From a virus: 29,746 nt of DNA. Where the stretch lies: the IMG/VR virus record IMGVR_UViG_3300042556_001864, positions 1 to 29,746 of that record. One strand, given 5' to 3'. The translations under genes were made by a program, and so were the position numbers. The notes below the pieces were generated by a model that saw nothing but the letters and a program-made list of their open reading frames with translations, searched no databases and was not told the DNA's origin. The first letter of the stretch is position 1; each line of letters begins with the position of its first letter. Shown one piece after another: positions 1,770 through 24,249 of the stretch.

Positions 1770-3089
1770 TTATTTCGAATTTTTTGTGGACTGAAGGACA
1801 CTAGCACGCAGCCATTGTGAGGCAACGCTTATCTTGTCAGCGACAGAGTCTTCAACTACTACAACTGCTGGTTCATCAACCTCGGTTACAGTTTCTAGAG
1901 CTTCAGTCTCTGTTTCGACTTCGACTTCAACCGACTCAGTGTCCGCAACAGGGGTCGGCTTAACAATCAGGGCTACTACTACATCGAACATCTCGTCAGT
2001 AGCGTCTGCAAACTTAGAGAGCAACTCAGTTGCTTTATCTTCGGTTGCACCAGCGGTAACGAGAGCATTCTTTCTTGCAGCAGCTTTCACTTCAGAAACC
2101 ATCTTCTGGATTTCCTGACTCAAAGTCAGTTTTTCCTGAGAGATAGTTGCAATAGTGGCTTCAAGTTCATTTACTTTTGTCTCAAGCGAAGCAATAGTGG
2201 CTTTATGAGTGCCAATTTCTGTCGCTAGAGTGCTTGCAGTAGTCTTCTCTGTTGAGAGAGCTTCTTTCAAAGCTGTGACTTCTGCTAGTTGCACTGAATT
2301 ATCTTCAGGCATCACTACCTCCATAGCCAATGTGGAAAAAGTATCTACGGGCTTGAATGGGTTAACTTCCTTCGGGAGGATAACACTTCTTGGATTTGCT
2401 GGCTTATCTACAAGACCCTTACCAGAAAAATATAGGTCTCTCAACAAGCGGCCAATTTTGTAGCCCTCATACGATCCAGTGCCACCATAAGCCCGCAAAT
2501 GCTTGGTGAGGAACGCAGAGTTTTCGTCTCTAGCTATAACTTTTTGTGAACCATCAGGCTCAACAACTGCATAATCGAAGTTTCGAAATACGCATTCCAT
2601 AGATACAGCTAATTGACCCTCGTCTATTTTGGCAATCAAGTCATTGACTCGACTGGACTGGTCGGGGTCGCCCCAAGTCTTATAAATAACGGCGGAAGTA
2701 ACTAGATCCATCTTTTCTGGAAGAGGGAGTTCGTTAATGATGGCACCATCCTCAGCCATTGCGGCTGAAGAAATCATATGTCCGATGATATCTGTCTCAT
2801 CGTGCATATAATTGAATGGCTTGTCGACTGGTGTTTCGCGTGCCGCCCATAGGTCTGCTACATCGAATACATCGTCGTTTTTATTCCATCCCGCCGATAC
2901 TAGAATGGAATTTAGATAGTAAAGATCTGCTTGAACTGGCCTATCACTAATTGAAGCTAGTGTTATTCCAGCTATCTCAGAGTCTCCACTAAGTAATTGA
3001 GTGCTAGTAATTGGGCATACCATAGCAACACTAACGCTCTTAAGAGCGTCAGATAAGTTGTCTAATTTTTCAGCTTCATATACTTGCAT
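1770..3089 (-). CDS. prohead protease-scaffold fusion protein
   Basis: 439 aa, ATG at 3089 behind GAGGTAA. The N-terminal ~230 residues look like a phage prohead protease: a His in FNYMHDETDIIGH (about residues 93-105) and a Ser in QLAVSMECVF (about 159-168) fit the His/Ser pair of S78-like head maturation proteases. Residues ~265-345 are a long heptad-rich coiled coil typical of a scaffold, followed by a very acidic Glu/Val/Thr-rich tail (about 375-420) and a short basic end. Such fusions let the protease remove its own scaffold after procapsid assembly. Protease assignment is inferred from motif placement and gene order. Confidence 0.72.
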   Translation of the reverse strand: MQVYEAEKLDNLSDALKSVSVAMVCPITSTQLLSGDSEIAGITLASISDRPVQADLYYLNSILVSAGWNKNDDVFDVADLWAARETPVDKPFNYMHDETDIIGHMISSAAMAEDGAIINELPLPEKMDLVTSAVIYKTWGDPDQSSRVNDLIAKIDEGQLAVSMECVFRNFDYAVVEPDGSQKVIARDENSAFLTKHLRAYGGTGSYEGYKIGRLLRDLYFSGKGLVDKPANPRSVILPKEVNPFKPVDTFSTLAMEVVMPEDNSVQLAEVTALKEALSTEKTTASTLATEIGTHKATIASLETKVNELEATIATISQEKLTLSQEIQKMVSEVKAAARKNALVTAGATEDKATELLSKFADATDEMFDVVVALIVKPTPVADTESVEVEVETETEALETVTEVDEPAVVVVEDSVADKISVASQWLRASVLQSTKNSK

Positions 3090-3141: not shown

Positions 3142-5136
3142 TTAAAATTCTTCGTAAGCATATGCTAAGCAGTTTATTTGACGTGCCTCATCAATAGTCG
3201 GCTGTCTATTATGGGTCGCCAAAAAGTTTCGGTAAAAAGGATGGGCATCTATTTTCTTCTTTTTCTCCATGGCCTCGGCCACAGACTCAGTATCTACTAG
3301 AGAGAATGGTTCTAGCCCACAAAGGGTCACGAACTTAATCTCCTCTAATTCGGCCTGCTGGCCCGTAGTCAATTCTCGCAGAGAATTACACCCATACTGA
3401 GAAAGCATAACTGGATTAAGAATGGCCGAAATCTTCTTCTGGGCCTCTGTGGTCCACAAGATAGTACTAGCCAAATCTGCTTTGCTCTTAGGGAGAACTC
3501 TTCTCTGCTTCCTAGGACCAGCATCCTTTTTGAACAAAGGTCGGCCATTATCTTTTACCGGCTTCTTTCCGGCAGGATTTCCGGCTCCGGGCTGGACAGG
3601 AGGCTTTCTTGCCTTATAATCTGTCACATCTTCAATGCTGAGTGTGTCTTTGGTGAGGGCCAATTTCACAAACTCAGACTCGACGTTGCCATTATGGAAT
3701 GGATCAGATTTAGGTGGCAATTTACGCTTCTTCCTGTCTTTTTCCTCTTTGGCGATTCGTGACTCTTCAATATCATGGGACTCACCGAATCTCTCCCTAA
3801 GGGTCTCAGCAGAGATGATGTGCCGATCTGACAATTGAATCCAAAGGTTCTTTTCAGCCGCCTCATCTGACAGGATCATATTGTCAAAGCGGAGTTCCGC
3901 TGGAGATGGGAAGCCCATAGCCGTAGCGATAGACTCAAACTCTAGCCTCCAGAAGTTTTCTAGTAGGCCCCGACCATATTCAAGCTTTTCAATGAGGGTC
4001 TTAAGGCTGAGGTAATTATTAGTGAAACCCCCACCAGAGGAAGTCCCAGTCATAGTTTGTGGGACTCCTAGTCCCCCATATACAGCATTAAGCACTGGGC
4101 CGTACTTCTCACTACCCAAGAAGTGGTAAATTTGGCTAGTGGATTCTTTAAAGTCGAGTTCTGGACCCCAAACAAGGTCCATAGTTCCACCACCCACATT
4201 ACTAGCCAATACATCTCGTAGCTTATCTACGGCTGCTCTAGTGGGGGCGATTTTATGCTCTAAGCTACCCAAACGCCACAGGCGTATATTAGAAATGGCC
4301 CCATCTAAAGCCGACATATCGGCCAACTTCATCTTCTCCATCATAGTAATATCATCTAAGATGGCATGGATCATTGGGTTTGCCCAAACTGCCCAATCAT
4401 CCTTCTTATAGTGATAGAGCGACAACCTCTCTGAATCTAATGGTATAAACTCGGCACCATCTAAAATCATCTTTCTGATCTTAGGGTCTACATCCTTTAG
4501 GAAGGATGGGTCGGCCTTCTTATTAGCAATAGCATTCTTGGTCTTGGAAGAGATTCTGATCTTGTAGCTCTTCTCCCCGCCGAAGATATCAGAATAGTCC
4601 CCATCTGCCTCAACGACTAGCGGATTAAGGAAGTCATATCTGAATGGGATGACTCTCTTTTCAGCCCTAGACATATCCTTCTGCTGCGACTTAGTGATTT
4701 TACCATTAGCCTTATAGACTATTACATTGCCTAGCCGGTACAGGTAATTGAGGAAACGTTCAGAACGTTCAGCCCCATTGACCTTCTGCCACCATCTCCG
4801 ATAGAATCGCTCTATGTTCTTATTAGTGTGGGAGATCCTGATGCCCTGAGAGGCAAAATCCCCCATCAGGTCAATAACCTGCTTGATAAGGCCGACATTA
4901 TCGTAAGCCTTAACGCACTTCCGCATGATGCCCTTAGCATCACCCTCTGGGGACTCCGAAGGGCGAAACCCGTAATAGTCTTCCCGATTGTACTCATCGC
5001 GAACCGATATGTTCGGCTCCAGCGAGAGATATCTGCGGTTGCTTGCAGAGGTACTCATCAATCCGGTGTACGAGGCTAAAGCCTCGTCTTGGAGAATTGC
5101 ATTGGTTGTTTGTGAAACACTCTTTTTTACTGCCAT
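3142..5136 (-). CDS. portal protein
   Basis: 664 aa, ATG at 5136. Large size, position directly after the terminase large subunit, and segments typical of portals (YHYKKDDWAVWANPMIHAIL, then TMTGTSSGGGFTNNYLSLKT in the middle) identify it as the dodecameric DNA-entry ring at the capsid vertex. Residues ~490-560 are a Lys/Pro-rich, probably disordered linker, and a C-terminal extension of roughly 100 residues (from about 560, including TILWTTEAQKKISAILNPVM) follows. That extension is longer than in compact portals and may be a separate small domain. The leader contains a palindrome at 5159-5176. Confidence 0.82.
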   Translation of the reverse strand: MAVKKSVSQTTNAILQDEALASYTGLMSTSASNRRYLSLEPNISVRDEYNREDYYGFRPSESPEGDAKGIMRKCVKAYDNVGLIKQVIDLMGDFASQGIRISHTNKNIERFYRRWWQKVNGAERSERFLNYLYRLGNVIVYKANGKITKSQQKDMSRAEKRVIPFRYDFLNPLVVEADGDYSDIFGGEKSYKIRISSKTKNAIANKKADPSFLKDVDPKIRKMILDGAEFIPLDSERLSLYHYKKDDWAVWANPMIHAILDDITMMEKMKLADMSALDGAISNIRLWRLGSLEHKIAPTRAAVDKLRDVLASNVGGGTMDLVWGPELDFKESTSQIYHFLGSEKYGPVLNAVYGGLGVPQTMTGTSSGGGFTNNYLSLKTLIEKLEYGRGLLENFWRLEFESIATAMGFPSPAELRFDNMILSDEAAEKNLWIQLSDRHIISAETLRERFGESHDIEESRIAKEEKDRKKRKLPPKSDPFHNGNVESEFVKLALTKDTLSIEDVTDYKARKPPVQPGAGNPAGKKPVKDNGRPLFKKDAGPRKQRRVLPKSKADLASTILWTTEAQKKISAILNPVMLSQYGCNSLRELTTGQQAELEEIKFVTLCGLEPFSLVDTESVAEAMEKKKKIDAHPFYRNFLATHNRQPTIDEARQINCLAYAYEEF

Positions 5137-22115: not shown

Positions 22116-22188
22116 GGGTAGTGTCCTCGACGGTTTTGAGGACGGTCCTTATAAGGCCGCACACATGGTTCGATTCCATGACTGCCCA
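22116..22188 (+). tRNA. tRNA-Ile (anticodon UAU)
   Basis: Complete cloverleaf: acceptor GGGTAGT/ACTGCCC (one G-U), D-stem CCTC/GAGG with G18G19, anticodon stem CGGTC/GGCCG with loop CTTATAA (anticodon TAT, 22150-22152), T-arm CATGG-TTCGATT-CCATG, discriminator A. No encoded CCA. It would read AUA. In most bacteria AUA is read by a CAU tRNA carrying lysidine, so a UAU tRNA is uncommon and would not need that modification. A promoter begins two bases downstream. Confidence 0.88.
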
Positions 22189-22189
22189 C

Positions 22190-22217
22190 TTGACAGCAAC
22201 ATATTTGTTGCTATAAT
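22190..22217 (+). promoter_or_regulatory. consensus sigma-70 promoter with palindromic spacer
   Basis: TTGACA (22190-22195), 16-base spacer, TATAAT (22212-22217), both boxes perfect. The spacer is the palindrome GCAACA-TATT-TGTTGC. Transcription would start at the RNA cluster 22220-22500, so its main product is probably RNA. Confidence 0.9.
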
Positions 22218-22292: not shown

Positions 22293-22364
22293 GGCCCATT
22301 AGTTGTGAAGTCATGACGTCGCACTTTCACTGCGAAGGAGCGGGAGCATTACCCGCATGGGTCA
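22293..22364 (+). tRNA. tRNA-Glu(UUC)-like cloverleaf with non-canonical elbow
   Basis: Acceptor GGCCCAT/ATGGGTC (one G-U), TA at 8-9, D-stem GTTG/TGAC, anticodon stem TCGCA/TGCGA with loop CTTTCAC (anticodon TTC, 22326-22328), T-stem GCGGG/CCCGC, discriminator A. All spacings are those of a tRNA. But the T-loop is AGCATTA instead of TTCRANN and the D-loop TGAAGTCA lacks G18G19, so the standard D-loop/T-loop elbow cannot form. The co-loss on both sides suggests selection or joint decay. Confidence 0.65.
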
Positions 22365-22426: not shown

Positions 22427-22438
22427 GTTTTAAGCCAG

Positions 22439-22498
22439 CCTATTACATTGGTTCGAATCCAATACACTTCGTGTTCGTCTAGTGGTCAGGACGATAGG
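22439..22498 (+). ncRNA. circularly permuted tRNA-like fold
   Basis: Order along the strand: 3' anticodon-stem strand CCTAT (22439-22443), 3-base variable loop, T-arm ATTGG-TTCGAAT-CCAAT (22447-22463), ACAC-TTC-GTGT (22464-22474), TC, D-arm GTCT-AGTGGTCA-GGAC (22477-22492), G, then 5' anticodon-stem strand ATAGG (22494-22498), which pairs perfectly with CCTAT. D- and T-loops have all conserved tRNA bases. The acceptor is only 4 bp and closed by TTC, while the anticodon loop is open, so it cannot be charged as written. Confidence 0.6.
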
Positions 22499-22527
22499 TA
22501 TTTTCAATTTTCAGAAGGCTTTAGCCC

Positions 22528-22794
22528 ATGTTTCAATTGGTCAAATTCTCCTGTGATTGTGTCGGAACTGCCCCAATCGGTGGGGTCACAACAATGGTTA
22601 AAAGTTGCGATGGAGAAGGCAATCTTTCCTTCTACCAGCGAAAAGTTGAGAACAAGAGTTTCCGCCCGCTCTCCTCTGAAGAAACTGAGGAATTCCGCTC
22701 AGAGCTTGAAAAGCTCATCTTGGATGGATACAATATGAAGGCCATGAGGTCGGTCCTAGGCGTTCAAACACAACTTAAGAAACTACTGGAGTAA
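22528..22794 (+). CDS. hypothetical protein
   Basis: 88 aa, ATG at 22528 with AGAAGG upstream. N-terminal strands with Cys (MFQLVKFSCDCVGTAPIGGV) and a helical C-terminus (EETEEFRSELEKLILDGYNM). First gene after the tRNA-like cluster, so its translation could depend on that RNA. No family recognised. Confidence 0.62.
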   Translation: MFQLVKFSCDCVGTAPIGGVTTMVKSCDGEGNLSFYQRKVENKSFRPLSSEETEEFRSELEKLILDGYNMKAMRSVLGVQTQLKKLLE

Positions 22795-24020: not shown

Positions 24021-24037
24021 ACTTACATGCAGAGTGG

Positions 24038-24057
24038 AAGGGGGAGAAATCCCCCTT
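24038..24057 (+). repeat. GAAA-capped 8-bp hairpin
   Basis: AAGGGGGA-GAAA-TCCCCCTT. It follows the tRNA-like RNA and precedes the terminator, probably within the same transcript. Confidence 0.6.
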
Positions 24058-24093
24058 GTAATGCGACTTTCCGGTCACAAGTCCGGACACTTT

Positions 24094-24221: not shown

Positions 24222-24249
24222 TTGACTCTTATTGATAGTGTGTTACAAT
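24222..24249 (+). promoter_or_regulatory. sigma-70-type promoter
   Basis: TTGACT (24222-24227), 16-base spacer, TACAAT (24244-24249). Drives the Gp88-like gene. Confidence 0.82.

What the first reader, a model, noticed from the sequence alone, without database searches (positions are those of the whole stretch)
22439..22498. Circularly permuted tRNA-like fold with a closed acceptor and an open anticodon
The T-arm, D-arm and 5-bp anticodon stem of a tRNA are all perfect, with the conserved D- and T-loop bases, but the 3' half comes before the 5' half. The halves are joined by ACAC-TTC-GTGT, so the acceptor is a 4-bp hairpin and the free ends are in the anticodon loop. Known permuted tRNA genes carry a removable spacer between full acceptor strands; here it is only TTC, so charging seems impossible. 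It may be a tRNA mimic (decoy for tRNA enzymes or anticodon nucleases) or a translation-control element for the gene at 22528.
Basis: partly seen in the sequence, partly recalled or inferred. Interest (0 to 1): 0.88.

Follow-up and report, generated by a model that had tools for sequence, protein, structure and literature searches.

The report
Phage-encoded Y-RNA-type tRNA mimic (YrlA-like)
A phage genome carries a small RNA element that copies the body of a tRNA in rearranged order, with the amino-acid end closed off; this matches a known class of tRNA mimics, the bacterial Y RNAs, so it is a new example of a known kind rather than an unprecedented tRNA.

Summary
At window 22438-22499 a T-arm, a 4-bp closed acceptor hairpin (ACAC-TTC-GTGT), a D-arm and a 6-bp anticodon stem follow one another in permuted order. 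The closest relative (L003, a 110-kb phage contig) has the same element: the two halves are 65/66 identical while flanks and linker diverge, and every difference inside a helix keeps its pair. I found 14 such modules in 12 of 17 neighbourhoods of Ro-like genes in annotated phages, and one with the same tRNA-Glu-type D-arm next to a Ro-family gene in an IMG/VR contig. A covariance model built without window or L003 hits exactly 22439-22498 (41 bits), though ordinary tRNA-tRNA junctions also score well; none of 306 real tRNA junctions has both the closed acceptor and the anticodon stem. Best reading: a phage YrlA-type tRNA mimic, transcribed behind a tRNA-Glu-like gene from a perfect sigma-70 promoter. 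Not shown: a Ro gene (none in 29.7 kb or in L003's contig), a Ro-binding stem, expression. Control of the ORF at 22528 is not conserved.

The parts
22438..22443 (+). 3' strand of the anticodon-stem equivalent (GCCTAT); opens to the upstream flank
   Evidence: pairs with 22494-22499; identical in L003 3515-3520
22447..22463 (+). T-arm ATTGG-TTCGAAT-CCAAT with T54 T55 C56 G57 A58
   Evidence: sequence; CM hit
22464..22474 (+). closed acceptor hairpin ACAC-TTC-GTGT (4 bp, 3-nt loop); in L003 the same place holds a linker with two hairpins
   Evidence: sequence; L003 pairs 3541-3545 with 3592-3596, one compensatory change
22477..22492 (+). D-arm GTCTAGTGGTCAGGAC, tRNA-Glu type
   Evidence: sequence; same D-arm type in modules of L116, L128, L133, L140, L162, L165, L169
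22494..22499 (+). 5' strand of the anticodon-stem equivalent (ATAGGT; ATAGGC in L003)
   Evidence: pairs with 22438-22443; G-U to G-C in L003
22432..22436 (+). AAGCC, 5' strand of a possible basal stem
   Evidence: MFE fold; basal-stem test inconclusive for window (z -1.7), positive for L003 (z -4.3)
22517..22521 (+). GGCTT, 3' strand of a possible basal stem; overlaps the likely ribosome-binding site AGAAGG of ORF 22528
   Evidence: MFE fold; sequence
22190..22217 (+). sigma-70-type promoter, 12/12 with TG before the second hexamer; also 12/12 at L003 3256-3283
22293..22364 (+). tRNA-Glu-like gene (anticodon TTC) between promoter and element, T-loop not canonical
   Evidence: Rfam RF00005 42.5 bits; 78% identical homologue L003 3294-3365
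22528..22794 (+). 88-aa ORF directly downstream; not at this place in L003, no relatives found

Best explanation
The element is the tRNA-like (effector) module of a phage-encoded bacterial Y RNA of the YrlA type, or a close derivative. The RNA is transcribed from the promoter at 22190 behind a tRNA-Glu-like gene. T- and D-loops dock into a tRNA elbow; the acceptor is a blunt hairpin, so it cannot be charged or used in translation; the anticodon stem runs into the flanks, where in Y RNAs the two ends pair to form the stem that holds the Ro/Rsr protein. By analogy (inferred, not shown here) the elbow is modified and bound by tRNA enzymes, and the RNA tethers or gates a Ro-family protein or PNPase, or competes for a tRNA-binding enzyme during infection. 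Shown here: architecture, conservation, promoter sequence, match to Ro-linked phage modules. Inferred: expression, Ro partner, protein binding.
For: Exact permuted order with all four helices; relative L003 with 65/66 identity in the two halves and pairing-preserving changes. The same order T-arm / closed hairpin with short loop / D-arm occurs 14 times in 12 of 17 Ro-gene neighbourhoods of annotated phages (90 kb; SM23 TROVE PF05731 E 2e-25; Finnry, Boopy, Tonenili, Trina annotated Ro-like), against one in 1.17 Mb of Ro-less relatives of the window, which is the L003 element itself. A module with the same tRNA-Glu-type D-arm (L140) lies beside a DUF2828 Ro-family gene. CM R1, trained without window and L003, hits window 22439-22498 with 41.1 bits and L003 with 36.4 bits. 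L003 has a significant basal stem (0 of 300 shuffles). 12/12 promoter upstream in both phages.
Against: No TROVE or DUF2828 protein in the window or in the 110-kb contig of L003, although both are fragments. RF02553 gives no match even at E 10; none of the Ro-linked controls reaches its gathering score either (31-52 of 69 bits, some unmatched), so this test is weak. The window's basal stem is not significant (20 of 300 shuffles). R1 also scores ordinary tRNA junctions highly: up to about 48 bits for junctions of annotated arrays and 56 bits for unsorted hits in tRNA-rich loci. The link between module and Ro gene across IMG/VR contigs is only suggestive (7/13 against 10/36, P 0.09). Only one homologous locus was found.
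Confidence: 0.75

Rival explanations
1. Ro-independent decoy: the module is expressed alone and sequesters a tRNA-binding host enzyme (modification enzyme, anticodon nuclease or other tRNA-targeting defence), using the elbow but offering no cuttable anticodon.
For: No Ro gene found in this phage group. The two halves are held at 65/66 identity while flanks change. PMC7790460 proposes that the YrlA tRNA-like domain may competitively inhibit an anticodon nuclease and reports that it is not cut by it.
Against: Genomes are incomplete, so absence of Ro is not established; no defence partner identified. It is a special case of the YrlA reading and not exclusive of it.
Confidence: 0.2
2. Remnant of a tRNA array: 3' half of one tRNA-Glu copy abutting the 5' half of another after deletions, without function.
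For: It lies in a tRNA region, next to tRNA-Ile and tRNA-Glu-like genes; paralogous halves would share anticodon-stem complementarity; array junctions can score well with the CM.
Against: 0 of 306 real junctions show both the closed acceptor and the stem; a decaying remnant should not be 65/66 conserved between phages whose neighbouring tRNA is 78% identical; acceptor pair 3 changed A-T to G-C between the two phages; no missing partner halves nearby.
Confidence: 0.07
3. Permuted tRNA gene whose ends in the anticodon loop are spliced to give a circular precursor and then a working tRNA-Glu(UUC).
For: Order 3' half then 5' half; in L003, joining CAUU to CAG would give a UUC anticodon loop (inference from sequence).
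Against: Window acceptor strands are 4 nt with a 3-nt loop, no room for 7 bp plus CCA; L003 has 5 pairs then a mismatch; position 33 would be A instead of U; no group I intron or other splicing element found by Rfam in the flanks.
Confidence: 0.02
4. Cis-acting 5'-UTR element controlling translation of the ORF at 22528.
For: AGAAGG lies 9 nt before the ATG and its GG can pair with AAGCC 22432-22436.
Against: In L003 the element is conserved but the ORF is absent from that place and is replaced by a terminator-like repeat; the ORF has no detectable relatives.
Confidence: 0.08

Closest known systems
YrlA, bacterial Y RNA with tRNA-like module (Rfam RF02553; Salmonella structure PDB 6CU1 as cited in PMC8394870)
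   Same: D-, T- and acceptor-arm mimicry; T-arm, closed hairpin, D-arm in that order; ends leave through the anticodon stem
   Different: No Ro/Rsr or RtcB gene in the available sequence; tRNA-Glu-type D-arm; short 4-bp acceptor hairpin; too far from RF02553 to score; follows a tRNA-Glu-like gene in one transcription unit
Phage Y-RNA-type modules next to Ro-like genes (Mycobacterium Finnry, Gordonia Boopy and GMA2, Microbacterium SM23, Enterococcus GVEsP-1, Sinorhizobium phiM7)
   Same: Same order, closed acceptor of 5-9 bp with short loop, often beside phage tRNA genes
   Different: Those lie within about 4 kb of a Ro-family gene and mostly carry GCTC-type D-arms; the window lacks the gene
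Circularly permuted tRNA genes (algae, archaea; reviewed in PMC3978253, abstract only seen here)
   Same: 3' half before 5' half
   Different: Those keep full acceptor strands around a removable spacer and are joined in the anticodon loop (own knowledge); here the acceptor is closed and short

Membership tests
YrlA / bacterial Y RNA | tRNA-like module with canonical T- and D-arms in permuted order, closed acceptor hairpin and anticodon stem as exit | tested here: met
YrlA / bacterial Y RNA | 5' and 3' ends pair into a long basal stem (the Ro-binding stem) | tested here: inconclusive
   L003 z -4.3 (0/300 shuffles), window z -1.7 (20/300); Ro-linked controls range from -0.1 to -5.4; the Ro-binding motif itself was not tested
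YrlA / bacterial Y RNA | encoded near a Ro60/Rsr (TROVE or DUF2828) gene | tested here: inconclusive
   none in window G000 or in L003's contig G001, but both are fragments; the element lies about 4 kb from the end of the L003 contig
YrlA / bacterial Y RNA | match to RF02553 above the gathering score | tested here: not met
   no match at E 10; Ro-linked phage controls also stay below the gathering score of 69 bits, so this is a weak criterion, not a biological one
YrlA / bacterial Y RNA | bound by Ro/Rsr and modified by tRNA enzymes such as TruB and DusA | not testable with these tools
   needs biochemistry
Circularly permuted tRNA gene | full 7-bp acceptor that can be matured to NCCA | tested here: not met
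   4 bp plus a 3-nt loop in window; 5 bp then a mismatch in L003
Circularly permuted tRNA gene | splice elements joining the anticodon-loop ends | tested here: not met
   no intron family found in flanks; flanks not conserved in L003

The most novel reading that the evidence does not exclude
A Ro-less, Y-RNA-derived tRNA mimic that has become an independent phage counter-defence or takeover RNA, co-transcribed with a tRNA-Glu that lacks a canonical elbow: one RNA keeps acceptor and anticodon, the other only the elbow, so that a tRNA-targeting enzyme is drawn to the mimic.
Probability: 0.15. Interest if true: 0.7.

Novelty: new member of a known kind. Interest (0 to 1): 0.4.

Why it matters
It shows that YrlA-type tRNA mimics, usually discussed with Ro60 in bacteria and actinobacterial phages, also occur in an unrelated group of environmental phages where no Ro gene is seen, and that Rfam's YrlA model does not reach them. 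If the RNA works without Ro, it would make the proposal that the YrlA tRNA-like domain can act as a competitive inhibitor of tRNA nucleases directly testable.

Tried and rejected
Permuted intron-exon (group I) reading: no intron family in the flanks, flanks unconserved. Permuted tRNA gene maturing to tRNA-Glu: acceptor too short, no U33. Chance: excluded by the junction control and by L003. Translation control of ORF 22528: ORF absent in L003. My first descriptor scans used a greedy D-arm pattern that missed GCTC-type D-arms, and one search had the same fault; corrected. The CM score alone was dropped as proof because hits in ordinary tRNA arrays score as high. Exact-pattern scans found no further close homologue. 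The Ro enrichment test across IMG/VR contigs was only P 0.09. RtcB was searched and not found. A rejoined-tRNA query found only ordinary phage tRNA genes.

Full report
What is there. Window 22438-22499 reads GCCTAT-TAC-ATTGG(TTCGAAT)CCAAT-ACAC(TTC)GTGT-TC-GTCT(AGTGGTCA)GGAC-G-ATAGGT. Read as RNA this is the anticodon-stem 3' strand, a variable loop, a perfect T-arm, a closed 4-bp acceptor hairpin, a D-arm of the tRNA-Glu type and the anticodon-stem 5' strand. The MFE fold gives these helices, but the energy is not unusual for the composition (z -1.44). ARAGORN and Rfam do not call a tRNA here. Upstream lie a tRNA-Ile (22116-22189), a 12/12 sigma-70-type promoter (22190-22217) and a tRNA-Glu-like gene (22293-22364, 42.5 bits).

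Conservation. The ORF at 24232 led to L003, the end of a 110-kb viral contig. It carries the same order promoter, tRNA-Glu-like gene, element, next gene. The 3' half (window 22432-22465) is identical over 34 nt and the 5' half (22473-22504) over 31 of 32, while the neighbouring tRNA-Glu-like gene is 78% identical and the flanks do not align. At 80% local identity 65/66 has a probability of 7e-6; at 88% it is 0.003. The gap between the two conserved blocks is 7 nt in the window and 52 nt in L003, where two hairpins fill the acceptor position. All three pairs that differ inside helices stay paired, one of them by a double change (A-T to G-C).

Identification. Scanning the hits of a flexible pattern search showed the same permuted order in other phage contigs; one of them (L165) aligned weakly with Rfam YrlA (RF02553), the Y-RNA family whose tRNA-like domain resembles the D, T and acceptor arms (PMC8394870). 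The YrlA consensus then found phage loci annotated 'Ro-like RNA binding protein' (SM23's protein matches TROVE with E 2e-25, Finnry's matches DUF7788/DUF2828). In 17 Ro-gene neighbourhoods (90 kb) 12 hold 14 such modules with acceptor hairpins of 5-9 bp and short loops, whereas 1.17 Mb of the window's Ro-less relatives hold one with canonical T- and D-loops outside tRNA genes, the L003 element. Modules with the window's D-arm type occur in L116, L128, L133, L140, L162, L165 and L169; that of L140 sits next to a DUF2828 gene. L162 is strikingly close to the window (same T-arm letters, TGCCTC-TTCG-GAGGTA hairpin).

Model test. A covariance model of 27 modules without window and L003 hits window 22439-22498 at 41.1 bits, E 5.7e-12, and L003 at 36.4 bits. 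Helix percentages in that alignment are partly circular because the scan required T, D and acceptor pairs; the outer acceptor pairs, not required, are still almost all paired with many double changes. The score is not specific: hits in tRNA-rich loci, which are largely T-arm/D-arm junctions of neighbouring tRNAs, reach as high or higher. The specific feature is the in-register acceptor hairpin together with the anticodon stem, seen in 0 of 306 real junctions, and the absence of flanking tRNA halves.

What is missing. No TROVE, DUF2828 or RtcB gene in the window or in L003's contig; both are fragments. RF02553 does not match the window even at E 10, but Ro-linked phage controls also miss its gathering score. 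A basal stem is supported in L003 (z -4.3) and not in the window (z -1.7), within the range of the Ro-linked controls. Across IMG/VR contigs, Ro genes are found in 7/13 contigs with modules and 10/36 without detected ones (P 0.09).

Reading. The element works, by architecture, like the YrlA tRNA-like module: an elbow without a chargeable acceptor. Full membership in the Y RNA family is probable but not proven, because the Ro partner and the Ro-binding stem are not established. A Ro-independent decoy is the main alternative; PMC7790460 itself raises competitive inhibition of an anticodon nuclease by the YrlA tRNA-like domain. Y RNAs in phages are already reported (PMC12282133, PMC7765460), so novelty is modest.

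Noticed in passing
window 22293-22364; L003 3294-3365: tRNA-Glu(TTC)-like gene with intact acceptor and anticodon but non-canonical T-loops (AGCATTA in window, ATCGTCC in L003) and, in the window, no GG in the D-loop; conserved between two phages and apparently co-transcribed with the mimic.
   Followed up: partly
window 24028-24086: Type-P5 twister ribozyme, 57.1 bits, about 1.5 kb downstream of the element.
   Followed up: no
L075 10461 and 6164, L076 9395 (minus strand, contig G013): Three tRNA-Leu-like genes with nearly identical acceptor, D-arm and T-arm but quite different anticodon/variable regions; ARAGORN does not call them.
   Followed up: no
L044 14333 (minus, same sequence as L004 9894-10075); L028 1492-1673: tRNA-like gene with an insertion of roughly 110 nt after the anticodon arm that itself can pair at its ends; Rfam scores it as tRNA.
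   Followed up: no
L044 about 2450-2700 (minus): Apparently nested or overlapping tRNA-like genes with canonical T-arms and odd anticodon arms.
   Followed up: no
L077 1234 (minus), L080 12378-12746: tRNA genes interrupted by sequences resembling group I intron cores; L080 has three consecutive T-arm-like hairpins.
   Followed up: no
L101, L128, L133, L155: Several YrlA-type modules per large phage contig, some in contigs without a detected Ro gene; candidates for an extended Rfam family.
   Followed up: partly
L003 2378-2415 and 3618-3660: Repeated A/G/T homopolymer element (TTTTTTTAAAAAAAGGGGGGGCCTTTTTT) that looks like a terminator; the second copy lies just after the element.
   Followed up: no
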